Of a stretch of DNA of 64,000 bases, positions 5,037 to 56,004 are shown in pieces (positions within the stretch are counted from its first letter, which is position 1; every line of letters starts with the position of its first letter). The DNA is from Gammaproteobacteria bacterium (GTDB lineage Bacteria; Pseudomonadota; Gammaproteobacteria; JAJPIJ01), in NCBI GenBank assembly GCA_022072255.1, contig JAJVHZ010000037.1:18162-82161 (forward strand). The letters run 5' to 3'. A program made the translations under genes and the position numbers. The notes below the pieces were generated by a model. That model searched no databases and was not told the DNA's origin. It saw only the letters and a program-made list of their open reading frames with translations.

Positions 5037-5408
5037 TCAGTTCTGGTTGGCCGGGTTGTGCGGCATGAACCCGGTGTTCCTGTACCACTCGTTCACCATC
5101 TGCTTGTCGGTGTACTGGTGGGCGACCATCATGTTGTGCAGCTCGCCGGTGTCGACCACGCCGTCCGTGTTCGCGTCGAGCTCCGCGAAGTGATCGGTCA
5201 TCCACGGCTGGAAGCCGTTGAAGTCCTCGCCGAGCACATGATTCATCTCCTTGACCTCGTCCATGCTCAGCTTGCCGTCCTTGTTGCTGTCATAACCGCT
5301 CCAGATGTCCTTCATCCAGTTTGACCATGGCATGAATCCCGTATCGCCGGCCGCGGAAGCCGAACCGACCGCGAAAGCAAGCACCAAAGCGATGAGTGTC
5401 TTATTCAT
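5037..5408 (-). CDS. Exported EF-hand protein, paralogue 1
   Basis: A 123-residue protein with a Sec signal peptide (residues 1-20, ending ASA-A), so periplasmic or secreted. Two canonical 12-residue EF-hand loops are visible: DSNKDGKLSMDE (40-51) and DANTDGVVDTGE (78-89). Each has acidic ligands at positions 1, 5 and 12, Asn at 3 and Gly at 6. The segment between them, GFQPWMTDHF, recurs as GFQAFMADHF in the gene at 5831-6160, so the two are paralogues. AGAGGA seven bases before the ATG is a good ribosome-binding site. Binding of calcium or a similar ion is expected from the loops. No proline follows the first Asp, unlike lanmodulin, so a lanthanide role is only speculation. Confidence 0.85.
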   Translation of the reverse strand: MNKTLIALVLAFAVGSASAAGDTGFMPWSNWMKDIWSGYDSNKDGKLSMDEVKEMNHVLGEDFNGFQPWMTDHFAELDANTDGVVDTGELHNMMVAHQYTDKQMVNEWYRNTGFMPHNPANQN

Positions 5409-5830
5409 TGCAGCATCCTCTGTGGGTTGACGTATCGACAGTTTCCTCGGCGGTGAACGATCTCACTCCACCGATGACCTTGCGCACCTCCGGACGCTTC
5501 CGGGGTGTGTACTGGCGTTATTTCAATCGTCATGCCAGCCGGCGTTACTGCTATTTTTCGCTTTGGAATCATCCGCATATGTCGATCGCCCGCCATCGGC
5601 CGGGATCCTGTACGCCGCGGCCGGCTGCGGCGATGAAGCAATGCCACGAAATACCGAGGCCGCTCGGGTTGGTCGATCGACGACAGCGGGGTGGTGCGCG
5701 CGCGGCGCGGGATCCTGCGGGAAGCGTGGGACGTTTCTGGCGATGAAGGCCGATCTGCAGACCGGCGCTGCGGGGAGCTGGAGTGCGCGGCGAGCGAAGA
5801 TCCGCGCGGAGGTTGACCGGCGTAGCGCCG
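5409..5830. other. Intergenic region between the two EF-hand genes
   Basis: A 422-base stretch upstream of EF-hand gene 1. Several frames are open but none has a ribosome-binding site or a recognisable product. I found no clear sigma-70 or sigma-54 promoter and no strong hairpin. Its length suggests that the two paralogues are transcribed separately. Confidence 0.4.
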
Positions 5831-6160
5831 CTAGTTCTTCGACATGAATGCAAATCCCTTGGCAAAGCCCTCCGCGACCTCGTCATCCGATATGCCCAGA
5901 CGCATCAGCCCCGCGCTCATCTCCTCGACGCTGACCATGCCGTCCTCGTTGGTGTCCAGGGCGATGAAGTGATCTGCCATGAAGGCCTGGAACCCCACGT
6001 ACTCGTCGTTGTGCGCGTATTCCTTCACCTCGTTCATGCTCACGCTTCCGTCAGCGTCCGTGTCGGCCTGCCTCATGACTTGTAGCCATGGCGGATCGCC
6101 CTCCAAGGCGCTGGCGGTCAGGGACATGAACATGAACAGCAGCGGACTCAGGCTTTTCAT
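5831..6160 (-). CDS. Exported EF-hand protein, paralogue 2
   Basis: A 109-residue protein with a short signal peptide (residues 1-18, ending TASA). The EF-hand loops are DTDADGSVSMNE (33-44) and DTNEDGMVSVEE (69-80), each with acidic ligands at positions 1, 5 and 12. The loops lie 36 residues apart, compared with 38 in paralogue 1. AGGAG eight bases upstream of the ATG supports the start. Shared signatures with the neighbour (NEVKEY against DEVKEM, and the GFQ..M.DHF linker) show tandem duplication followed by divergence. Likely a periplasmic divalent-cation-binding or sensing protein; no partner is evident in the window. Confidence 0.85.
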   Translation of the reverse strand: MKSLSPLLFMFMSLTASALEGDPPWLQVMRQADTDADGSVSMNEVKEYAHNDEYVGFQAFMADHFIALDTNEDGMVSVEEMSAGLMRLGISDDEVAEGFAKGFAFMSKN

Positions 6161-6235
6161 CGCAGGACTCCTGGCAATCCTCGTATGCTCTGCATCAATC
6201 CGGCCAACCCGGGGGTACCTCCATCGCGACTGCGA

Positions 6236-6649
6236 TCAGCGGGCGTATGCCTGCGTCGCATCCCGAAAAGACTTGAACTCCAGTGCATTTCCGCTCGGGT
6301 CCAGCACGAACATGGTCACCTGTTCGCCGGTTTGACCGGCGAACCGCACCGTCGGTTCAACCAGAAACCGCGTCCCGCGCGCGCGCAGCCGGTCCGCCAT
6401 ACGCTGAAAGTCCTGCCACGCCATGATCACCCCGAAATGAGGGATCGGGACCGGGCGTCCGTCCACCGATCCCACCCCGTGGCTGTGCGTGGGGCGCAGG
6501 TGCGCCGACAACTGGTGCCCGAAGAAATCGAAGTCGACCCACGTCTCGGATCTGCGGCCTTCGCGACAGCCGAGCACCTCGGTGTAGAAGACGCGCGTCG
6601 CCTCGAGATCGGTCACCGGGAGGGCGAGGTGGAACGCCGGGCAGCTCAC
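6236..6649 (-). CDS. VOC-superfamily (glyoxalase-like) protein
   Basis: A 137-residue cytoplasmic protein with the two beta-alpha-beta-beta-beta halves of the vicinal oxygen chelate fold. The opening [22 protein letters not shown] is typical. His7, the second-half PHFG and the final [13 protein letters not shown] (Glu near the end) are likely metal ligands. The substrate cannot be assigned. Its start overlaps the stop of the lipoprotein gene by four bases, so it lies in an ilvA-aldolase-lipoprotein-VOC run. Confidence 0.85.
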
Positions 6650-7230
6650 CTCACGAACTCGAGATATCGCGGATCATTCAGGAGTTTCTCGAGCGCCCTG
6701 GCCAGCGTGTCGTTGACGTAGGCCTCGTTGTCCTCCGGCGCGGGCGCGCGCAGCACATTGCGCGTATCGGACACCCCGGCGCTGGCAGCGTAGCGCTGGT
6801 CGCCGCGCGTGATGACGTTCGAGACCTTGGCCGCGATCTCCACCGTGCGCACCACCGGGTCGCCATAGGCCCTGTAGGACAACGCCTCCAGCCCGACCGT
6901 CATGCCGAAATCCGCCGGCGCGCCGGCGTCCAGGACGCGGAAGCCCTGTGCGCCGAGCGCGTCCGCCATCGATCTTCGCAATGCCGCCGCGACGTCATCC
7001 ACCGTGGAGATGGTGGCGCTGTCCCGGTAGACGCCGCCGCGCGTGCCCAGGGTCTGGTCAGCGCGATGATCGACCGCGTCCAATGCGACCGTCCGGCCCT
7101 GGCCGATGTCCGATTCATCGATTGCCAGCACCGGTTGCAGCGGCACGGTCTGAGGACTCAACGCGCAGCCCGTCAGCAGCCACGCGACCAGTAGCGCGAC
7201 CGGCGGGAGGACAGTGCGGGGGGCCTTCAT
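6646..7230 (-). CDS. YajG-like lipoprotein
   Basis: A 194-residue predicted lipoprotein with an ATG at 7230. The N-terminus ends in the lipobox LLTGC, so Cys is lipidated and the protein sits in an outer or inner membrane. The mature part ([19 protein letters not shown], later [23 protein letters not shown] and [18 protein letters not shown]) fits the YajG family of unknown function. It overlaps the aldolase gene by four bases and the VOC gene by four bases, so the three are probably translationally coupled. Confidence 0.8.
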
Positions 7231-7880
7231 GACCTGCCCTGCTCCTGCCGTCCGTAGCTCTTGAACTTCTCCATCACGATAAGCATCTCGGCGCGCGTGA
7301 GTCGGGCGGGCCGGCCGATCTGCAGGCTCAGCACATACTGCCGTGCCAGGAACTCGACCTCGGTCGCGAGCGCCATGGCGCCGTCGAGGTCCTCGCCATA
7401 TGCGAGCATGCCGTGATTGGCCAGCAGACACGCGCGACGGCCGGTGAGCGCCCGCAATGCGTGGTCAGACAGCGCCTGCGTGCCGAAAGTTGCATAGGGC
7501 GCGCAACGTATGGAGTCCCCGCCGGCGACGGCCACCATGTAGTGAAAGGCCGGGATCGAGCGGCGCGTGCAGGCAAGGGCGGTCGCATACGGCGAATGCA
7601 CGTGCACGATCGCGCCCGCCTCCGGCCGCGCGGCATAGATGTCCCGATGGACGCGCCATTCGCTGGACGGCCGCAGTTGGCGGCCCGGCACCGTACCGTC
7701 CGTGGTCACATGCACGATCGACCCCGGCCGCAGCCTTGCGTACGGCATGCCCGTCGGCGTGATGAGGAAGCCCGTGCGCACGCGGGCGCTGACGTTCCCG
7801 GCCTTGCCGGGGTTGAGCCCGGTCTCATTGATGGAGCGCGCCGCCGCGATGATCTGCCTTCGCAGGACGAGGTGGGCCAT
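7227..7880 (-). CDS. Class II aldolase/adducin-family protein
   Basis: A 217-residue zinc-dependent aldolase-fold protein of the fuculose-phosphate aldolase/ribulose-5-P epimerase group. Motifs are NPGKAGNVSAR (phosphate-binding GN-S), the catalytic acid in SSEWRVHRDIY, the zinc pair in HVHSPYATALA, and a third zinc His in NHGMLAYG. The substrate is not decidable by eye; fuculose-1-phosphate aldolase and methylthioribulose-1-phosphate dehydratase are both possible. It begins three bases after the ilvA stop, in the same operon. Confidence 0.85.
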   Translation of the reverse strand: MAHLVLRRQIIAAARSINETGLNPGKAGNVSARVRTGFLITPTGMPYARLRPGSIVHVTTDGTVPGRQLRPSSEWRVHRDIYAARPEAGAIVHVHSPYATALACTRRSIPAFHYMVAVAGGDSIRCAPYATFGTQALSDHALRALTGRRACLLANHGMLAYGEDLDGAMALATEVEFLARQYVLSLQIGRPARLTRAEMLIVMEKFKSYGRQEQGRS

Positions 7881-7883
7881 GGC

Positions 7884-9398
7884 TCAGCCGAGAAACATCT
7901 GGTACGCGGGGTTGGCCGTCTCCTCGACGTGAACCATCCCCAGTCGGTCGAGAAATCCCTGGAACTCGGCCGTATCCCCCGGCGGCACCTGCATGCCCAT
8001 CAGCACGCGCCCGTAGGCGGCGCCGTGGTTGCGGTAGTGAAACAGGCTGATGTTCCATCGGCTGCCCAGCTCCCCGAGGAAATGCAGCAGCGCACCGCTG
8101 CGCTCCGGGAACTCGAACCGGAAGATGCGTTCGTGTTCGACAAAATTGCCGTGGCCGCCCACCATGTAGCGCACGTGCATCTTCGCCATGTCGTTCGCGG
8201 ACAGATCCGACACCTCGAAGCCCTTCTCGCGCAACGAATCGATGAGCTGGTCCTTCTCCTTCAGACCGTTGCGGACACGAACGCCCGCGAAGACGTGCGC
8301 GTGGCCCGGATCGGCGTAGCGGTAATTGAACTCGGTGATCTGGCGCGGCCCGAGCGCGTGGCAGAACGTGCGAAAGCTGCCCGGCCGCTCGGGTATCGTC
8401 ACGGCGATCAGCGCCTCGCGCTGCTCGCCCAGCTCGGCGAGCTCCGCGATATGCCGCAGCCGATCGAAATTGACGTTCGCACCGCTGAAGATCGCCACCA
8501 GCTGTTTGCCGCGCAGGCCATGCTTCGCGACGTACTGCTTGATACCGGCCAGCGCCAGCGCGCCGGCCGGCTCCGCGATCGCGCGGGTGTCCTCGAAGAT
8601 GTCCTTGATGGCGGCGCAGAGCTCGTCGTTGTTCACGAGCAACGAGTCATCCACCAGCTCGCGCGCGATACGGAAGGTCTCGCCGCCGATCTGGCGGACC
8701 GCGGCGCCGTCGGCGAAGATGCCGACCGACGGCAGCACGACCCGTTCGCCGGCCCGCAACGCCGAGTGCAGAGTCGGGGCCTCGTCGGATTCCACGGCGA
8801 TGATCCGGGTCCGCGGCGCGACCTCCTTGACGTATGCCGCCACGCCCGCGATGAGACCGCCGCCGCCGACGGGAACGAAGATCGCGTCGATATCCCGGGA
8901 GGACTGCCGGAGGATCTCCATGCCGACCGTACCCTGGCCGGCGATCACCAGAGGGTGGTCGTAAGGCGGGACGTAGGTCAGCCCGCGTTCGCGTTCCAGT
9001 TCATGGGCGTGCTCGCTCGCTTCGTCGTAGGTGTTCCCGTGCAGAACGATGTCCGCGCCGTGCCTGCGTACGGCGGTAACCTTGATTTCCGGCGTGGTCT
9101 TGGGCATCACGATGAGCGCCGGTATCCGCAGCCGGGCAGCCGCCAGCGCCACCCCTTGCGCGTGGTTGCCGGCGGATGCGGCGATGACACCGCGGCGGCG
9201 CTGTTCGGGGTCGAGCGAGCTAATGTGGTTGTAGGCGCCGCGCAGCTTGTAGGAGAACACCGGCTGCAGATCCTCGCGCTTGAGCCATACGGCGTTTTCC
9301 AGGCGTCGCGACACCTCGGGCATCGAATCGAGCGGCGTCTCGCGCGCCACGTCGTAGACCCGCGCGCGCAGTATCATCTTGAGGTAGTCTTCGAACAT
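7884..9398 (-). CDS. ilvA: Threonine ammonia-lyase, biosynthetic
   Basis: PLP enzyme that deaminates threonine to 2-oxobutanoate, the first step of isoleucine synthesis. The catalytic domain carries WLKREDLQPVFSYKLRGAYN (Schiff-base Lys in SYK), SAGNHAQG and GGGGLIAG. Two ACT-like regulatory modules follow (about residues 320-504; the starts are near PERPGSF and PERSGAL), giving feedback control by isoleucine. I chose the ATG at 9398 (504 residues), which aligns with the E. coli N-terminus at EDYLKMILRARVYD. The longer start at 9425 has GGAGGG directly against it. The gene is divergent from rpiA across a gap of about 47 bases. Confidence 0.96.
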   Translation of the reverse strand: MFEDYLKMILRARVYDVARETPLDSMPEVSRRLENAVWLKREDLQPVFSYKLRGAYNHISSLDPEQRRRGVIAASAGNHAQGVALAAARLRIPALIVMPKTTPEIKVTAVRRHGADIVLHGNTYDEASEHAHELERERGLTYVPPYDHPLVIAGQGTVGMEILRQSSRDIDAIFVPVGGGGLIAGVAAYVKEVAPRTRIIAVESDEAPTLHSALRAGERVVLPSVGIFADGAAVRQIGGETFRIARELVDDSLLVNNDELCAAIKDIFEDTRAIAEPAGALALAGIKQYVAKHGLRGKQLVAIFSGANVNFDRLRHIAELAELGEQREALIAVTIPERPGSFRTFCHALGPRQITEFNYRYADPGHAHVFAGVRVRNGLKEKDQLIDSLREKGFEVSDLSANDMAKMHVRYMVGGHGNFVEHERIFRFEFPERSGALLHFLGELGSRWNISLFHYRNHGAAYGRVLMGMQVPPGDTAEFQGFLDRLGMVHVEETANPAYQMFLG

Positions 9399-9445
9399 CG
9401 ACGGTAGAATAGCATTTAACCCCATCCCTCCGAGAAGGGCCGGCG

Positions 9446-10099
9446 ATGACCCAGGACGACAAGAAGCGGCATGTGGCCGAGGCGGCGTTGGCGTACGTCG
9501 AGGACGATGCCGTGATCGGGGTCGGCACCGGCAGCACGGTCGACTTCTTCATCGAGAAGCTTGCGGCGATCAGGGGGCGCATCGCCGGCGCGGTTTCCAG
9601 CTCCGAGGCCTCCACCGCCTTGCTGCAGAGGCACGGCATCCCGGTCGTGGAACTGAACAGTGCCGGCGACCTCGGCGTGTACATCGACGGCGCGGACGAG
9701 GCCACGCCTCAGCGCGCGCTCATCAAGGGCGGCGGCGGCGCGCTGACGCGCGAGAAGATCGTGGCTGCCGCCAGCCGCCGGTTCATCTGTCTCGTCGACG
9801 ACTCGAAAATGGTAGATGTCCTCGGCCGCTTCCCGCTGCCCGTGGAGGTGATACCGATGGCGCGCAGTTACGTTGGCCGGCAGCTCGTCAAGCTCGGCGG
9901 GCGGCCGGAGTTGCGCCTGGGAGTCACCACCGACAACGGCAACCTCATCATCGACCTGCATGGTCTGAAGATCCTCGAACCCGCGAAGCTCGAGGCCGAG
10001 ATCAATCAGATCGCCGGCGTGGTATGCAACGGAATCTTCGCCCGGCGCCCGGCTGACCTCCTCCTCGTCGGTCGCGACAACGGCGTCGAGAAGATATAG
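9446..10099 (+). CDS. rpiA: Ribose-5-phosphate isomerase A
   Basis: Interconverts ribose-5-phosphate and ribulose-5-phosphate in the non-oxidative pentose phosphate pathway. The 217 residues match the RpiA family. [17 protein letters not shown] forms the phosphate loop, YIDGADEA holds catalytic acids, and [12 protein letters not shown] holds the Lys/Glu catalytic region. It is divergent from ilvA, a common gammaproteobacterial pairing. TAGAAT at 9405-9410 resembles a -10 element but no -35 sits at good spacing. Confidence 0.97.
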
Positions 10100-10125
10100 G
10101 CGAACCCCACACCCGGAGCCTCGCG

Positions 10126-10344
10126 ATGCCGGACCTGCCGCCCGTCTCCCGAATCCTCGTGGTTGCCGGTGCGCTGTTGATCGTGATCGGGCTGCTGTGG
10201 CCGGTTGTCGCCCGGCTGGGCCTGGGCAGACTGCCGGGCGACATCGTGATTGAACGCGAAGGTATGCGTATCCACCTCCCGCTGGTCACCGGTCTCATCC
10301 TGAGCGCGATCCTTTCGGTCCTGCTCTGGTTCTTCCGCCGCTGA
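10126..10344 (+). CDS. DUF2905 small membrane protein
   Basis: A 72-residue protein with two hydrophobic segments (about residues 9-29 and 50-69) flanking the conserved LGRLPGDIVIEREGMRIHLPL block that defines DUF2905. Function is unknown. It follows rpiA by 26 bases and may be co-transcribed with it. It converges on tatC with about 40 bases between. Confidence 0.85.
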   Translation: MPDLPPVSRILVVAGALLIVIGLLWPVVARLGLGRLPGDIVIEREGMRIHLPLVTGLILSAILSVLLWFFRR

Positions 10345-10385
10345 CGCCGTGCCCGGCGCCACCTGCGCGGCCTGCCCGCCGGGAC

Positions 10386-11165
10386 TCAACCGGCCGGGTG
10401 TATGCGCGGCGTGTCGGAGTCCTCCTCGCGCCTGGGCAGAAGGCCGGACACCCACACTCCTGTCTCGTAGAGCAACCACATCGGCACGGCCAGCAGCGCC
10501 TGAGAAACCACGTCCGGCGGCGTGAGGAACGCGCCGACCACGAAACACCCCACGATCACGTAGGGCCGCATCTCCTTCAGCTTGGCGCGCTCGATGACCC
10601 CGGCGCGCACCAGCAGCACCGTGGCCACCGGGATCTCGAATACCACGCCGAAGGCCACGAACATGGACAGTATGAAGTCGAGATAGCTGTTTATGTCGGT
10701 CATCACGGTGACCCCGGCAGGCGCCGTGCTGGTGAAGAATCCGAAGATGACAGGGAAAACCACGAAATAGGCGAACGCGGCTCCGCAGTAGAACAGCAGC
10801 GTGCTGGAAACGAGCACCGGCAATACCAGACGCTGCTCGGTCTGGTACAGGCCCGGCGCGATGAATCCCCACACCTGATAGAGGACATAAGGCAGCGCGA
10901 TGAACAACCCGAGCACGGCCACCAGTTTGAACGGCGCCATGAACGGCGCCGCCACACCGGTGGCGATCATCGTCGAATTCGGCGGCAGCAGTTTCATCAT
11001 CGGCTGCGCCATCAACGTGTAAATGTCGTTGGCGAAGAACGACAGGGCGACCACGATCACCAGCACCGCGAGCAGGCTGCGCATCAGGCGCGTGCGCAGT
11101 TCGACCAGATGCTCGATGAAGGTCTGCTCGCGATCGCCCGGGGGCGCCTGATGTTCGGATTCCAT
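10386..11165 (-). CDS. tatC: Sec-independent translocase subunit TatC
   Basis: A 259-residue polytopic inner-membrane protein that recognises twin-arginine signal peptides together with TatB. It has the six membrane spans of the family, the N-terminal EQTFIEHLVELRTRLMRSL signature with the conserved Glu, and the FAYFVVFP motif. It is last of tatA-tatB-tatC, downstream of the his genes, a common gammaproteobacterial arrangement. Confidence 0.97.
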   Translation of the reverse strand: MESEHQAPPGDREQTFIEHLVELRTRLMRSLLAVLVIVVALSFFANDIYTLMAQPMMKLLPPNSTMIATGVAAPFMAPFKLVAVLGLFIALPYVLYQVWGFIAPGLYQTEQRLVLPVLVSSTLLFYCGAAFAYFVVFPVIFGFFTSTAPAGVTVMTDINSYLDFILSMFVAFGVVFEIPVATVLLVRAGVIERAKLKEMRPYVIVGCFVVGAFLTPPDVVSQALLAVPMWLLYETGVWVSGLLPRREEDSDTPRIHPAG

Positions 11166-50548: not shown

Positions 50549-50705
50549 CAGCAGGCACGGCAGATCGATGCCCGGCCGCCGCCGCAGCCGGGGCGGACAG
50601 CGGCCCGGGATCGCACCGCCGCCTCCGGCCGCCCCGGCGGTTGCGCGCCTGACAGGCGGCGCGCGCCCGCGTGCGCCGCAGACCATTATGCAGCAGGGAA
50701 CCGAC

Positions 50706-53606
50706 ATGACCACGACCTTCGAACTGTTACGCGCGCAGCGCATCGACACGCTGAACGTGGAGATGCAGGAATACCGGCACAACAGCACCGGGGCCGTGCA
50801 CTATCACCTCGCCGCCGAGGACAGCAACAATTGCTTCATGGTCGCGTTCCCGACCGTGCCGATGGATCACACCGGCGTCGCCCACATCCTGGAGCACACC
50901 GTGCTGTGCGGCAGCCGCAAGTTCCCGGTGCGCGATCCGTTCTTCATGATGCTGCGCCGCTCGCTGAACACCTTCATGAACGCGTTCACCAGCAGCGACG
51001 CGACCGCCTACCCGTTCGCAACACAGAACCGCAAGGACTTCGAGAACCTGCTGTCGGTGTATCTCGACGCGGTGTTCTTCCCCCGGCTCGATCCGCTGGA
51101 CTTCGCGCAGGAAGGTCACCGCATCGAGTTTGCCAGGCCCGCCGACCCGTCCTCGCCGCTGATGTACCGCGGCGTTGTCTACAACGAGATGAAGGGCGCG
51201 ATGAGCTCGCCCATCGCACAGGTGCAGATGGAGCTGCAGTCGCTGCTGTTCCCGACCACGACGTACCACTACAACAGCGGCGGCGACCCGGAGCACATCC
51301 CCGCGCTCAGCTACGAGCAGCTCGTGAGCTTCCATCGCGGCCATTATCACCCCTCGAACGCCACCTTCATGACCTACGGGGATTTCCCGGTGCGCGATCA
51401 TCAGGCCCTGATCGAGGATTGGGCATTGCGGCATTTCGAGAAGCGGGTCCTCGACCTGCACCTGCGCGACGAGCGTCGCTACCGCGAGCCGCTGCGGGTG
51501 GAGAGCTATTACACGCACGAGGGCTCCGGCGAGGAGCGCGACGCGACCTACATCGCCATGGGCTGGCTGCTCGGCCAAACCGGCGAAACGCGCCACTACA
51601 TGCACGATCTGCTGCTGTCCAACGTGCTGCTCCAGCACAGCGGCTCGCCACTGCGGCAGGCGCTGGAGACCACCATGCTCGGCACCGCGCCGCTGGAGCT
51701 TTGCGGCCTGGACGACTCCGCGCGCGAGGCCATGTTCATCTGCGGCCTGGAAGGCTCCAATGCCGGGGATGCCGATGCGGTGGAGCGGCTGATCATCGAC
51801 GTGCTGGAGGGCGTGGCCCGCGATGGCGTGCCGCTGGAGACGATCGAGGCGGTGCTCACCCAGATGGAGATCGCCCAGCGCGAGCTCGGCGGCGGCCATT
51901 TCCCTCACGGGCTGCAGTTGCTGACCCGCATACTGGGCGCAAAGACACACGGCGGCGATCCGTTCGCCTTCCTCGACGTCGATGCCGCCATCGAGGAGCT
52001 GCGCGCCGAGATCAAGGACCCGGATTTCATCAGGCGCCAGGTGCGGCGGCTGCTCGACAACCCGCACCGTGTGCGGCTGGTAATGAGCCCCGACCCGGGC
52101 CTCGCCAAACGCCGTGAGCAGGCCGAACGCAAACGGCTGGACGCGCTCGCGCGCGAGATGGACAACGCCCGCCGGCAGGCCGTCATCGAGCGCGCCGCCA
52201 CGCTCGACGAGCGCCAGCGCCACGGCAACAATCCGGACCTGCTGCCCAAGGTGGGCATCGCCGACGTGCCGCCGGATCTCCGTATCCCCGTCGGCCGGGA
52301 ACAGCCGATCGCAGGCACCCCGGCAACCTGGTATTCCGCCGGCACCAACGGCCTGGTCTACATGCAATGGGTGGCCGAGCTGCCCGAGCTGACCGCGGCG
52401 GAGACCGAGGCACTGGTGTTGTACTACACGATGCTGCCGGAAGTCGGCAGCGGCGGCCGCGACTACGCCGCCACCCAGGCCCTGCAGGCGCGTCTTGGCA
52501 GCCTCGCGGCACACGTCTCGCTGCGCGCCGATGTCGCCGATGTGAACAATGCGCGGGGATTCATCGCGCTGTCCGGAAAGTCGCTGGCGCGCGATCAGGC
52601 TGCGCTCGCCCGCCTCATGCGCGAGACCATCGACACCGTCGATTTCGGCGAGCGGCAGCGCGTGCGCGAAGTCGTGGCGCAGATGCGCGCCGCGCAGGAG
52701 GCCTCGGTCACCGACCGTGGCCATACGCTGGCCATGCTGGCGGCGGCCTCCGGCATGGGCACCGTCGGCGAGCTCGACAACCTCTGGGACGGTCCGCTGT
52801 CGATCGCGAAGCTGAAGCATCTCGACGCCGTGGTCAACGACGAGGCCGCACTGGCCGGGTTCGCCGACCGCCTGCGGGCGATCCGCGAAAAGATGTCGGC
52901 CCAGCCGCCTTGCCTGCTGGTGGTCAGCCAGGAGGACGAGCAGCGCGCGCTCGAGGCGACGCTGGCCGCCACGCTCGCCGCCGACAACGTCGGCCGCGCG
53001 GGCAGCCGGTTCGGCTGGTCCGGGTCGTCCAGGCGCGTGCACGAGGCATGGCTCGCCAGCACCCAGGTCAATTTCTGCGCACGCGCATATCCCGCGGTGC
53101 CGGCGGATCATCCCGATGCGCCCGCCTTCAGCGTGCTGGGCAAGTTCCTGCACAACGGCTATCTGCACCGTGCGATCCGCGAGCAGGGCGGTGCCTACGG
53201 CAGCGGCGCGCGCTACGACTCCGACTCCGGCAGCTTCCGCTTCTTCTCATACCGCGACCCGCGCCTGGAGGGGACGCTGCAGGACTTCGACGAGGCACTC
53301 GCATGGCTGCAGGGCACGCACATCGACCGCGAACTGGAGGAGGCCGTGCTCGGCATCATCCAGGCGATCGACCAGCCCGCCTCGCCCGCCGGCGAGGCCA
53401 TCCAGGCCTACTTCCAGGCGCTGCATGGACGCACGCCGGATTTCCGCCGCCGTTATCGGAGCGGGGTCCTGCGCACCACGGTCGCGGATCTGCAGCGGGT
53501 TGGCCGTGAATACCTGCGCCCGGAACTGGCGAGCACCGCGGTCATCACCAACCGCGAGACGCTGGAGAAGCACGCGCACCTGCGGCTGGAGCCCAGGATA
53601 ATTTGA
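50706..53606 (+). CDS. M16C zinc metallopeptidase (PreP-like)
   Basis: A 966-residue insulinase-family peptidase. The inverted zinc motif HILEH is at residues 60-64, and the distal Glu is expected in VVYNEMKGAMSSP. The four homologous domains of a full-length M16C enzyme fit the length, and GGAYGSGARYDSDSG is seen in the C-terminal half. PreP-type enzymes degrade unfolded peptides up to about 65 residues inside a closed chamber. No signal peptide is seen, so it is cytoplasmic. It is 640 bases upstream of pqqA; PqqF, which processes PqqA, is also an M16 peptidase. The start at 50706 is preferred over 50688. Confidence 0.92.
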   Translation: MTTTFELLRAQRIDTLNVEMQEYRHNSTGAVHYHLAAEDSNNCFMVAFPTVPMDHTGVAHILEHTVLCGSRKFPVRDPFFMMLRRSLNTFMNAFTSSDATAYPFATQNRKDFENLLSVYLDAVFFPRLDPLDFAQEGHRIEFARPADPSSPLMYRGVVYNEMKGAMSSPIAQVQMELQSLLFPTTTYHYNSGGDPEHIPALSYEQLVSFHRGHYHPSNATFMTYGDFPVRDHQALIEDWALRHFEKRVLDLHLRDERRYREPLRVESYYTHEGSGEERDATYIAMGWLLGQTGETRHYMHDLLLSNVLLQHSGSPLRQALETTMLGTAPLELCGLDDSAREAMFICGLEGSNAGDADAVERLIIDVLEGVARDGVPLETIEAVLTQMEIAQRELGGGHFPHGLQLLTRILGAKTHGGDPFAFLDVDAAIEELRAEIKDPDFIRRQVRRLLDNPHRVRLVMSPDPGLAKRREQAERKRLDALAREMDNARRQAVIERAATLDERQRHGNNPDLLPKVGIADVPPDLRIPVGREQPIAGTPATWYSAGTNGLVYMQWVAELPELTAAETEALVLYYTMLPEVGSGGRDYAATQALQARLGSLAAHVSLRADVADVNNARGFIALSGKSLARDQAALARLMRETIDTVDFGERQRVREVVAQMRAAQEASVTDRGHTLAMLAAASGMGTVGELDNLWDGPLSIAKLKHLDAVVNDEAALAGFADRLRAIREKMSAQPPCLLVVSQEDEQRALEATLAATLAADNVGRAGSRFGWSGSSRRVHEAWLASTQVNFCARAYPAVPADHPDAPAFSVLGKFLHNGYLHRAIREQGGAYGSGARYDSDSGSFRFFSYRDPRLEGTLQDFDEALAWLQGTHIDRELEEAVLGIIQAIDQPASPAGEAIQAYFQALHGRTPDFRRRYRSGVLRTTVADLQRVGREYLRPELASTAVITNRETLEKHAHLRLEPRII

Positions 53607-53659
53607 TGGGTCGGAGTGAATTATCCTGGTGCACGCACCCCGGCGCGACACCCCCGCCC

Positions 53660-53974
53660 ATGCGAAAGGTCTACACCTCTGCGAACCGGATGCTGGTCGG
53701 CCTGCTCAGCGGCGCGCTGGGCGATCACGGCATAGAATGCATCATCCGCAACGATTACCTCGGCGGCGGCGTCGGCGATCTCCCGGCACAGGAGTGTTGG
53801 CCGGAACTGTGGGTACTGCACGATCACGACGAGGCAAGGGCGCGGCAGATCGTCGAGGCCGTGCTGCCCCGACAGCCCATCGCGGGCGAGCGGTGGCAAT
53901 GCCCGGGGTGCGGCGAGTGGCTCGAGCCGCAGTTCGGGGCATGCTGGCGGTGCGCTGCGACCGCCGACCCCTGA
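53660..53974 (+). CDS. DUF2007 protein with C-terminal zinc ribbon
   Basis: A 104-residue protein. The N-terminal ferredoxin-like DUF2007 part reads MRKVYTSANRMLVGLLSGALGDHGIECIIRND. The C-terminus has a zinc ribbon CPGC (WQCPGCGEW) and CWRC. Related proteins may bind PII-like or metal partners; function is unknown. I chose the ATG at 53660 because it gives the family N-terminus, although it lacks a ribosome-binding site. An ATG at 53606 overlapping the peptidase stop is the alternative and would add 18 residues. Confidence 0.8.
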   Translation: MRKVYTSANRMLVGLLSGALGDHGIECIIRNDYLGGGVGDLPAQECWPELWVLHDHDEARARQIVEAVLPRQPIAGERWQCPGCGEWLEPQFGACWRCAATADP

Positions 53975-54175
53975 GCAGCACGGCACGCCCGTCCATGGTC
54001 TGTCCGCCGCCCGCTGCCCGCGGCCGCTTTGGTTAATCACAACCAGCTGGCTGTTTTATATTAATCAAATCCGTCCCGCCGGGCCTGGGCCGCGGTACGT
54101 CTGCCGGGAGCAGAGAATATTCTAAGATATTGAAAATTATAACCTATGTCCTTGGCCTCGACCGCCCGGGTCGGC

Positions 54176-54190
54176 TGGCACGGGAACTGC
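54176..54190 (+). promoter_or_regulatory. Candidate sigma-54 (-24/-12) promoter of pqqA
   Basis: TGGCACGGGAACTGC matches the consensus TGGCAC-N5-TTGC at nine of ten specified bases. The invariant GG (54177-54178) and GC (54189-54190) are exactly ten bases apart. It predicts a transcript starting near 54202 and a leader of about 48 bases before pqqA. An AT-rich tract at about 54115-54145 could be bent by IHF, as sigma-54 promoters often need. The activator binding site is not identified. rpoN is intact in this window. Confidence 0.6.
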
Positions 54191-54249
54191 CCGGGTAAAG
54201 GTACGTCAGTTTAATTGCGGTTCCAACTCACTCACTGGAGGGTATCAAA

Positions 54250-54324
54250 ATGGCCTGGGAAACTCCTGCTTTCGCCGATGTGCGCTTTGGCTTCGAAGTC
54301 ACGATGTACATCAGCAACCGTTAA
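54250..54324 (+). CDS. pqqA: Coenzyme PQQ precursor peptide PqqA, stand-alone copy
   Basis: A 24-residue peptide ending GFEVTMYISNR. The Glu16 and Tyr20 pair in E-x3-Y is what PqqE joins and PqqF, PqqB and PqqC later convert to pyrroloquinoline quinone. Both residues and the surrounding motif agree with Klebsiella and Pseudomonas PqqA, and the length is typical. GGAGGG at 54237-54242, seven bases before the ATG, is a strong ribosome-binding site. A -24/-12 promoter lies upstream and an intrinsic terminator starts 23 bases after the stop, so it is a single-gene transcript. No pqqB, C, D, E or F is in the window; these must be elsewhere or this is an extra copy. PQQ serves periplasmic alcohol, methanol or glucose dehydrogenases. 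Confidence 0.93.
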   Translation: MAWETPAFADVRFGFEVTMYISNR

Positions 54325-54347
54325 TCGGGTAACTGGGTTGTATCGGC

Positions 54348-54377
54348 AAAGGGGCCTCATGGCCCCTTTGTTTTTTT
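54348..54377 (+). terminator. Intrinsic terminator of pqqA
   Basis: A perfect nine-base-pair stem (AAAGGGGCC with GGCCCCTTT) around a TCAT loop, followed by GTTTTTTT. It is strong, plus-strand-directed and 23 bases after the pqqA stop. It ends the transcript before the convergent algC gene. Confidence 0.92.
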
Positions 54378-54465
54378 CCTGTCTCCACGCCCGCGGCTCG
54401 CGAGCCGCCCGCCCGTAAACCACCGGGGGGCGGGGCCACTTGACCGGCCGGCAGCCGCCGCCGGC

Positions 54466-55845
54466 TTAGAAGGGCACCGGGATGCCGGGCCAGACGGCCT
54501 GCAGCGCGTGCCGGAAATCGGCCTGTATCCGTCGCAGCGCCGCTTCGTTCTCGGCCTCGAAGCGCAGCACCACCACCGGCGTGGTGTTCGAAGGCCGCGC
54601 CAGTCCGAAACCATCGGCGTACTCCACGCGCAGCCCGTCGATGGTGATGCGTTCGGTCGCGCCGGCAAACTCGCCGCGACTCTTCAGCCGTTCCACCAAC
54701 TCGAAGGGCTCGCCCTCGGCCATCTTGATATTGATCTCCGGCGTGCTGGTGGAGTCCGGCAGGGCGGCGAGCACGGCATTGGCGTCCGCGGCGCGCGACA
54801 CGATCTCGAGCAGCCGGGCACCGGCATACAGACCGTCGTCGAACCCGTACCAGCGCTCCTTGAAGAACATGTGGCCGCTCATCTCGCCGCCGAATGGCGC
54901 GTTGGTCTGCTTCAGCTTGGCCTTGATGAGCGCGTGGCCCGTGTTCCACATCAGCGGCACTCCGCCCGCCGCCCGGATGGCGGGCGCCAGGTTACGCGTG
55001 CATTTCACGTCGTAGATGATCTGGCCGCCCGGAACTCGCGAGAGCACGTCGCGCGCAAACAGCATCAGCTGCCGATCCGGGAACACCACCTCGCCGTTCT
55101 TCAGCACCACGCCCAGCCGGTCGCCGTCGCCATCGAAGGCGAGCCCGAGTTCGGCATCGCTGTTTTTCAGCATGTCGATGACATCCTCGAGATTCTCGAG
55201 CTTCGAGGGATCCGGGTGGTGGTTGGGAAAGCTGCCGTCGACCTCGCAGTAGAGCTCCACCACCTCGCAGCCCAGGCGCCGGAACAGGCGCGGCGCGACG
55301 TCGCCCGCCACGCCGTTGCCGCAGTCGATCACGATCTTCATCGGGCGCGAGAGCTTCACGTCGGCGACGATCCGCTCTAAGTACCTGTCGCGGACGTCCG
55401 CCGTGCGCAGTGCGCCGGCGCCGTGCGCGAGATCGTCGCCCTCGATGCGGCGGCGCAGGCCCTGGATCAGATCGCCGAACAGCGTCTCGCCGCCGAGCAC
55501 CATCTTCAGACCGTTGTACTCCGGCGGATTGTGACTGCCGGTGACGCTCACGCAACTGCTGCAACCGAGCTCGTGGGCAGCGAAATAGGCAAGCGGAGTC
55601 GCCACGCAGCCGATGTCGATCACATCCACGCCCGCGGCGCGGATGCCCTCGCCGAGCGCGCTGGCCAGGCGCGGGCCGGACAGTCGCCCGTCGCGGCCGA
55701 CCGCGATCGCCGTCTGTCCGCGGGCCCGTGCCTCGCTGCCCAGCGCCTGACCGATGGCGCGCGCGGCGTCCTCCGTCAGTGTCTTGTCGACGATGCCGCG
55801 GATGTCGTAGGCCTTGAAGATCTCCGCCGCCGGAACCTGATGCAT
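54466..55845 (-). CDS. algC: Phosphomannomutase/phosphoglucomutase (AlgC-type)
   Basis: A 459-residue alpha-D-phosphohexomutase. It supplies mannose-1-phosphate and glucose-1-phosphate for LPS core and exopolysaccharide. The phosphoserine is Ser104 in VTGSHNPPEYNG, the metal loop is FDGDGDRLG, the sugar-binding loop is GGEMSGHMFF and the phosphate-binding C-terminal loop is RPSNTTPVVVLRFEA. Length and motifs match AlgC. GGAGG six bases before the ATG at 55845 fixes the start. Confidence 0.94.
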   Translation of the reverse strand: MHQVPAAEIFKAYDIRGIVDKTLTEDAARAIGQALGSEARARGQTAIAVGRDGRLSGPRLASALGEGIRAAGVDVIDIGCVATPLAYFAAHELGCSSCVSVTGSHNPPEYNGLKMVLGGETLFGDLIQGLRRRIEGDDLAHGAGALRTADVRDRYLERIVADVKLSRPMKIVIDCGNGVAGDVAPRLFRRLGCEVVELYCEVDGSFPNHHPDPSKLENLEDVIDMLKNSDAELGLAFDGDGDRLGVVLKNGEVVFPDRQLMLFARDVLSRVPGGQIIYDVKCTRNLAPAIRAAGGVPLMWNTGHALIKAKLKQTNAPFGGEMSGHMFFKERWYGFDDGLYAGARLLEIVSRAADANAVLAALPDSTSTPEINIKMAEGEPFELVERLKSRGEFAGATERITIDGLRVEYADGFGLARPSNTTPVVVLRFEAENEAALRRIQADFRHALQAVWPGIPVPF

Positions 55846-56004
55846 GCAGCCCTCCTGTCGGTGTTCGATGCACCGGATTATCACACGCCGGCCCGCCCAC
55901 CCGGCAGCCGGGCGCCGTTCGTACTGAGAAGAATGCCGCGGCGATCGGGCCTGCCTGCACGCAGACTGCAGGCGCGGCTGCTATGCTCACTTCAGAGGCG
56001 AACC

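What the first reader, a model, noticed from the sequence alone, without database searches (positions are those of the whole stretch)
54250..54324. Stand-alone pqqA gene, too short for ordinary gene calls
Seen: a 24-codon gene with a strong ribosome-binding site, the PqqA motif GFEVTMY and the Glu16/Tyr20 pair that PqqE cross-links. Known: PqqA normally leads pqqABCDE. Here the next gene is a convergent algC and no other pqq gene is in 64 kb. Inference: the precursor is encoded away from the rest of the pathway, or this is an additional copy that raises precursor supply.
Basis: partly seen in the sequence, partly recalled or inferred. Interest (0 to 1): 0.75.

Follow-up and report, generated by a model that had tools for sequence, protein, structure and literature searches.

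The report
Extra pqqA gene in sigma54 regulon
This tiny gene is a real extra copy of the peptide from which bacteria make the cofactor PQQ, and its promoter, like those of most pqqA genes in its relatives, carries the landmarks of a switch (sigma54 plus what looks like a dedicated two-component regulator) that I could not find described for PQQ.

Summary
In detail: 54250-54324 encodes MAWETPAFADVRFGFEVTMYISNR, a bona fide PqqA (TIGR02107, 47.9 bits, cut-off 20). The genome has the whole pathway elsewhere (pqqABCDE on contig C15), a divergent pqqADE set on C1, and a second stand-alone pqqA on C46. This is one of four copies, and extra copies are a published, common arrangement. As a gene it is a new member of a known kind.

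What I did not find described is its control. The 220 bp before the gene carry a sigma54 -24/-12 element and, 146 bp upstream of it, a perfect palindrome TGGTT-N6-AACCA with a weaker second copy 22 bp on. All four pqqA copies here, and pqqA genes in 27 of 43 pqqA-bearing genomes tested, have the pair. So do PqqU-type PQQ importers in seven genomes. One histidine kinase/NtrC-type regulator pair, present here beside a PQQ dehydrogenase, occurs in 30 of 52 genomes with pqqA and 1 of 317 without. It adjoins pqqA in 12 genomes and tracks the promoter elements (26/29 versus 1/14). I infer a dedicated two-component, sigma54 regulon for PQQ precursor supply and import. Regulator-DNA binding and the signal are untested.

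The parts
54250..54324 (+). pqqA, 24 codons, stand-alone PQQ precursor peptide gene
   Evidence: E16/Y20 present; mostly synonymous differences between copies
54237..54242 (+). ribosome-binding site GGAGGG, 7 nt before the ATG
   Evidence: sequence
54176..54191 (+). sigma54 -24/-12 element TGGCACGGGAACTGCC; expected transcript start near 54202
   Evidence: 0/300 and 1/200 shuffles as good; same element before the other pqqA genes; no sigma70-like promoter found in 53960-54470
54030..54045 (.). UAS1: perfect palindrome TGGTTAATCACAACCA (TGGTT-N6-AACCA), 146 bp upstream of the -24 element
   Evidence: one of only two perfect sites in the 4.27-Mb genome, the other inside a NapC-like coding frame
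54052..54067 (.). UAS2: weaker second site TGTTTTATATTAATCA (8/10), exactly 22 bp after UAS1
   Evidence: second site at +22 bp with a score of at least 7 in 22 of 33 loci, the only strongly enriched offset
54345..54372 (+). intrinsic terminator of the single-gene transcript
   Evidence: -24.4 kcal/mol, z -3.6
54466..55884 (-). context: algC-type phosphomannomutase/phosphoglucomutase, convergent
53603..53974 (+). context: DUF2007 protein
50568..53606 (+). context: M16C (PreP-type) peptidase; conserved beside algC in G001, which lacks pqqA here, so not evidence of a PQQ role

Best explanation
The gene is a stand-alone extra copy of pqqA whose 24-residue peptide feeds the PqqBCDE enzymes encoded on contig C15. 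Shown: the gene, the rest of the pathway, three further pqqA copies, the terminator, and conserved upstream elements. Inferred: transcription is by sigma54-RNA polymerase from 54176-54191. It is switched on when a two-component system (membrane sensor kinase C38:11247-12737 and NtrC-type response regulator C38:12730-14163, encoded after a PQQ-dehydrogenase and a cytochrome c gene) is activated and the regulator binds the tandem palindromes TGGTT-N6-AACCA at 54030-54067 as an enhancer. The same switch would drive all four pqqA copies of this genome and, in some relatives, the PqqU-type PQQ importer. Precursor supply and import would thus be raised together when PQQ demand (PQQ shortage, or alcohol substrate) is sensed in the periplasm. 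The signal is unknown.
For: pqqA identity. Pathway elsewhere: (PqqB 389 bits, PqqC 365, PqqD 122, PqqE 571, all above cut-off on C15). Four copies. Several PQQ alcohol dehydrogenase genes. Sigma54 plus UAS before all four own copies and in 27 of 43 pqqA genomes tested; the joint score of the window promoter was matched by 0 of 2000 shuffles. Combined pattern GGTT-N6-AACC-N84..145-TGGCAY-N6-TGC in 28 genomes: 29 hits, reversed-pattern control 0, about 26 of the hits at pqqA. Second palindrome at exactly +22 bp in 22 of 33. Kinase: one strong ortholog in 30 of 52 pqqA genomes, 1 of 317 others (Fisher p about 7e-29, genomes not independent). Kinase versus promoter elements 26/29 vs 1/14, p=2e-7; by family 12/13 vs 1/12, p=3e-5. 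Kinase within 3 kb of pqqA in 12 genomes of 8 families. NtrC-type regulator next to the kinase with Response_reg, Sigma54_activat and Fis-type HTH domains. PqqU-type receptors (closest PDB match the solved PQQ transporter, 368 bits against 83 for the next receptor) carry UAS (8-10/10) and sigma54-like sites in G134, G069, G001, G303, G123, G215, G011, not in G147, which lacks the kinase.
Against: No binding, transcript or mutant data. Three kinase-bearing genomes do not fit fully: G162 (nine pqqA copies, neither element), G173 (sigma54-like site, no UAS), G031 (perfect UAS, no clear sigma54 element). G334 has the elements but no kinase found (82% complete; sister G124 has it). The sigma54 element of the window has CTGC rather than the consensus TTGC. 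PqqU is absent from this genome and from 27 of 38 searched, so co-regulation of import is not general. The sister species G001 lacks this particular copy, so it is dispensable. The kinase could act on a regulator other than its neighbour.
Confidence: 0.72

Rival explanations
1. An ordinary dosage copy: a duplicated pqqA transcribed from a housekeeping promoter; the upstream motifs are incidental.
For: Extra pqqA copies are common (24 of 52 pqqA genomes; 3-12 copies in Methylophilaceae, PMC4109929).
Against: No sigma70-like promoter in 53960-54470; joint UAS plus sigma54 score reached by 0 of 2000 shuffles; the same pair at non-syntenic copies in about 13 families.
Confidence: 0.08
2. The promoter is sigma54-dependent and the palindrome is its enhancer, but another enhancer-binding protein binds it; the kinase/regulator pair merely travels with PQQ genes.
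For: Own-genome kinase/regulator genes are on C38, away from any pqqA; no binding data; G162 has the kinase but no sites.
Against: The pair is the immediate neighbour of pqqA in 12 genomes of 8 families and its presence tracks the sites.
Confidence: 0.14
3. The peptide serves something other than PQQ synthesis, for example lanthanide handling, as proposed for the orphan pqqA2/pqqA3 of Methylorubrum extorquens (PMC11317620).
For: Orphan pqqA copies respond to lanthanide form in that organism.
Against: The peptide differs by one residue from the operon copy, with all substrate residues kept, and shares its regulation.
Confidence: 0.04
4. A decaying, silent relic.
For: G001 lacks it at this site and keeps what looks like a degenerate UAS.
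Against: Intact RBS, ORF, terminator and the best UAS of the four own copies; mostly synonymous differences between copies.
Confidence: 0.02

Closest known systems
Stand-alone pqqA paralogs of methylotrophs (Hyphomicrobium FJNU-6, PMC9851590; Methylophilaceae, PMC4109929; M. extorquens pqqA2/pqqA3, PMC11317620)
   Same: Several pqqA copies, one in pqqABCDE, one in pqqADE, others separate: the same layout as this genome.
   Different: No sigma54/UAS control in the passages I read; the nine-copy genome G162 lacks both elements.
LuxR-type and sensor-kinase control of PQQ genes in Pseudomonas (ErbR/AgmR, ErcS; PMC12997753)
   Same: A regulatory system that controls PQQ synthesis with PQQ alcohol dehydrogenases.
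   Different: Not sigma54; two Pseudomonas-like pqqA genes (G147, G164) lack the palindrome and the kinase (assignment to Pseudomonas from peptide sequence, from memory).
NtrC-family two-component systems (AtoSC, ZraSR, PEP-CTERM response regulator)
   Same: Membrane kinase plus receiver-AAA+-Fis regulator acting on sigma54 promoters from upstream enhancers.
   Different: Scores far below every NCBIfam equivalog cut-off (AtoC 369 of 714, TIGR02915 342 of 502.6); linked to pqqA and carrying GAFT[SNTH]A in place of GAFTGA.
PqqU/YncD TonB-dependent PQQ importer (PMC12124388; PDB 6v81, 9c4o)
   Same: The second recurrent target is a PqqU-type receptor.
   Different: That paper infers, from lack of synteny, that importer and biosynthesis are generally regulated independently; here they share an enhancer motif in seven genomes.

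Membership tests
PqqA (TIGR02107/PF08042) | match above the curated cut-off | tested here: met
   47.9 bits vs 20; 43.3 vs 21.1
PqqA (TIGR02107/PF08042) | Glu and Tyr separated by three residues, the pair joined by PqqE | tested here: met
   E16 and Y20 in the translation
PqqA (TIGR02107/PF08042) | PqqBCDE present in the same genome | tested here: met
   C15 cluster
PqqA (TIGR02107/PF08042) | peptide is made and turned into PQQ | not testable with these tools
   needs transcript, translation or PQQ assay
sigma54-dependent promoter | GG at -24 and GC at -12 with correct spacing and flanking consensus | tested here: met
   TGGCACGGGAACTGCC, one core base off the consensus
sigma54-dependent promoter | upstream enhancer site, often tandem | tested here: met
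   palindromes at 54030-54045 and 54052-54067
sigma54-dependent promoter | transcription lost without RpoN | not testable with these tools
   wet-lab test
sigma54-dependent promoter | rpoN present in this genome | not tested
NtrC-family response regulator controlling pqqA | receiver, sigma54-interaction and Fis-HTH domains | tested here: met
   Pfam on the G122 ortholog; own copy matches AtoC/NtrC-type models over its full length, below every cut-off
NtrC-family response regulator controlling pqqA | belongs to a named regulator family (AtoC, NtrC, ZraR, PEP-CTERM response regulator) | tested here: not met
   all below equivalog cut-offs
NtrC-family response regulator controlling pqqA | binds TGGTT-N6-AACCA | not testable with these tools
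   co-occurrence and linkage only
PqqF/PqqG peptidase (M16) for the neighbour at 50568-53606 | match to a PqqF model | tested here: not met
   M16C/PreP type by Pfam; no NCBIfam match at 1e-20

The most novel reading that the evidence does not exclude
A dedicated two-component system, widespread in Gammaproteobacteria (GTDB sense), senses PQQ status or demand from the periplasm and, through sigma54 and a TGGTT-N6-AACCA enhancer, sets the supply of the PqqA precursor (all pqqA copies) and of the PQQ importer PqqU together: a cofactor-homeostasis regulon not described before. Stand-alone pqqA copies such as this one multiply the output of that switch without enlarging the enzyme operon.
Probability: 0.55. 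Interest if true: 0.75.

Novelty: new variant of a known kind. Interest (0 to 1): 0.62.

Why it matters
PQQ drives methanol, alcohol and sugar oxidation in many bacteria and is an industrial product, and precursor peptide supply has been reported to limit it (Methylovorus work cited in PMC11317620). Outside Pseudomonas and Methylobacterium I know of no described control of its synthesis. A conserved enhancer, a candidate kinase/regulator pair and a short target list make the question 'what signal sets PQQ supply?' directly testable. They also connect biosynthesis with import, which a 2025 survey took to be generally regulated independently (PMC12124388).

Tried and rejected
A link of the neighbouring M16 peptidase to PqqF was rejected: it is PreP/M16C type and stays beside algC where pqqA is absent. 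The idea that the pqqA-algC neighbourhood is conserved was rejected: none of 80 named algC loci, most with 5-6 kb flanks, contains a pqqA by motif, and the stand-alone copies of relatives lie in other contexts. Regulation of the PQQ alcohol dehydrogenases by the same sites was tested for several of them in this genome and not seen. Rfam: no RNA family in the window. Organism: not resolved; the algC protein is closest to Rhodocyclales, but the genome's nearest held relatives beyond its own family are only 'same class'.

Full report
The gene. The 75 bases 54250-54324 encode MAWETPAFADVRFGFEVTMYISNR. It matches the NCBIfam PqqA model at 47.9 bits against a cut-off of 20 and the Pfam PqqA model at 43.3 against 21.1. 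Glu16 and Tyr20, the pair joined by PqqE, are present. GGAGGG lies 7 nt before the ATG. A 12-pair stem followed by a T run at 54345-54372 ends the transcript (-24.4 kcal/mol, z -3.6). The next gene is a convergent algC. No pqqB, C, D or E is in the window.

The genome. The window is contig C10:18162-82161 of a 4.27-Mb, 95% complete assembly. C15 holds a complete pqqABCDE: PqqB 389 bits, PqqC 365, PqqD 122, PqqE 571, all over their cut-offs. C1 holds a divergent pqqA ([24 protein letters not shown]) followed by pqqD and pqqE; no B or C was found in the 19.5 kb around it. C46 holds a second stand-alone pqqA. Peptides of C10, C15 and C46 differ at one or two residues while 4-7 codons differ synonymously. 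Several PQQ alcohol dehydrogenase genes are present. So this is one of four pqqA copies.

This layout is known. Hyphomicrobium FJNU-6 has pqqABCDE, pqqADE and three separate pqqA genes (PMC9851590; genus from memory). Methylophilaceae carry 3-12 copies (PMC4109929). M. extorquens has orphan pqqA2 and pqqA3 that respond to lanthanide form, and in Methylovorus PqqA availability was reported to be rate-determining (PMC11317620). In a sample of 369 genomes of the class, 52 have pqqA and 24 of these have two or more copies.

History of the copy. In G001, the sister species, the flanking DNA is 89% identical but the segment with pqqA is gone. What remains in its place aligns by eye to the upstream palindrome in degenerate form (TGGTCAACCTCGGCCGG), which suggests loss there rather than recent gain here. 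Stand-alone copies of the other relatives lie in unrelated contexts, with only the gene and its immediate flanks in common.

The control region. Upstream of the window gene is TGGCACGGGAACTGCC (54176-54191), a sigma54 -24/-12 element one core base off consensus. No sigma70-like promoter was found in 53960-54470. A perfect palindrome TGGTTAATCACAACCA (54030-54045) lies 146 bp further up. The joint score was reached by 0 of 2000 shuffles. The sigma54 consensus I used is from memory (Barrios et al. 1999), and the palindrome was noticed on this family's sequences first, so the family itself is not independent evidence. The other genomes are.

Across genomes. With a fixed pattern GGTT-N6-AACC, a gap of 84-145, and TGGCAY-N6-TGC, 28 pqqA-bearing genomes gave 29 hits and the reversed pattern none. 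All but three hits are pqqA promoters. The three others are a PqqU-type receptor (G134), a catalase-peroxidase-like gene (G237, named from the translation by eye) and one probably by chance (G134:C276). A second palindrome sits exactly 22 bp after the first in 22 of 33 loci (mean score 6.45 against a background of 2.4), which is two helical turns, as expected of an enhancer bound by two dimers. In this genome only two perfect palindromes exist: this one, and one inside a NapC-like coding frame.

The regulator. Beside stand-alone pqqA genes of G134, G237 and G122 lies a sensor kinase with two predicted membrane segments and a stretch of about 145 residues between them, presumably periplasmic (read from the sequence), followed by an NtrC-type response regulator. 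A profile of the kinase finds a single strong ortholog in 30 genomes. In 369 genomes it is in 30 of 52 with pqqA and in 1 of 317 without; the exception, G313, is a 78% complete genome from a family whose other members here have both. It is within 3 kb of pqqA in 12 genomes of 8 families. Among genomes with a scorable pqqA promoter, the elements occur in 26 of 29 with the kinase and 1 of 14 without (p=2e-7; by family 12 of 13 against 1 of 12, p=3e-5). In this genome the pair is at C38:11247-14163, after a PQQ dehydrogenase and a cytochrome c gene. The regulator scores far below every named NCBIfam regulator cut-off.

A second target. The G134 receptor matches the solved PQQ transporter PqqU/YncD at 368 bits against 83 for the next receptor. 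PqqU-type genes of seven kinase-bearing genomes have the palindrome (8-10 of 10) and a sigma54-like site at 91-142 bp spacing; that of G147, without the kinase, has neither. This threshold was set by eye, and these sigma54 sites are on average weaker than those of pqqA. The PqqU-type genes of G142 and G173 do not show the pair clearly. This genome has no PqqU match at E 1e-60.

Mechanism. Shown by sequence: gene, pathway, copies, terminator, conserved paired elements, and co-occurrence and linkage of one kinase/regulator pair. Inferred: sigma54 transcription, binding of this regulator, and joint control of precursor and import. Unknown: the signal. Because each stand-alone copy carries its own enhancer and terminator, adding copies would multiply precursor peptide relative to the enzymes, which fits a substrate consumed one per cofactor.

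Literature. Searches of 5.39 million open papers for pqqA or PQQ with sigma54, RpoN, NtrC or two-component found no report of this control; I read passages of the few that looked close, not every paper listed. The nearest are LuxR-type control in Pseudomonas (PMC12997753) and the PqqU survey that expects independent regulation (PMC12124388). Subscription papers are mostly not held, so 'not described' is provisional.

Verdict. The stand-alone gene is ordinary for its kind. The sigma54/two-component regulon around it is the finding.

Noticed in passing
L016 (G000:C1:24500-44000), pqqA about 9046-9117, pqqD 9137-9493, pqqE 9423-10610: A second, divergent pqqADE set without pqqB/C nearby; its pqqA ([24 protein letters not shown]) recurs in G001 and G002, with sigma54 and UAS, and a similar one is in G164 without them. 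Its product could be PQQ precursor or a different cross-linked peptide.
   Followed up: partly
G162 (L141, L163-L169): Nine pqqA copies in a 2.6-Mb genome, none with the sigma54/UAS elements, although a distant kinase ortholog is present.
   Followed up: partly
L238 (G237:C11) 97-245: UAS plus sigma54 pattern upstream of a catalase-peroxidase-like gene whose frame appears split in two.
   Followed up: no
L237 (G134:C21) 5100-7349 and L205/L290 (G001:C7): PqqU-type TonB receptors with perfect palindromes upstream; the G001 gene has an in-frame TAG.
   Followed up: partly
G031 (L024): Perfect palindrome upstream of pqqA, next to the kinase gene, but no recognisable sigma54 element; either a divergent -24/-12 or a different promoter.
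   Followed up: no
L173 (G142:C3) and L176 (G237:C6): Two of the best sigma54-like elements end in TGGC or TAGC at the -12 instead of NTGC, with perfect palindromes; the -12 element may be more variable than the pattern I used.
   Followed up: no
G000:C38:8639-14163 (L138): Own kinase/regulator genes follow a PQQ dehydrogenase gene (464 bits, just under the TIGR03075 cut-off of 480) and a diheme-type cytochrome c gene; no UAS upstream of these.
   Followed up: partly
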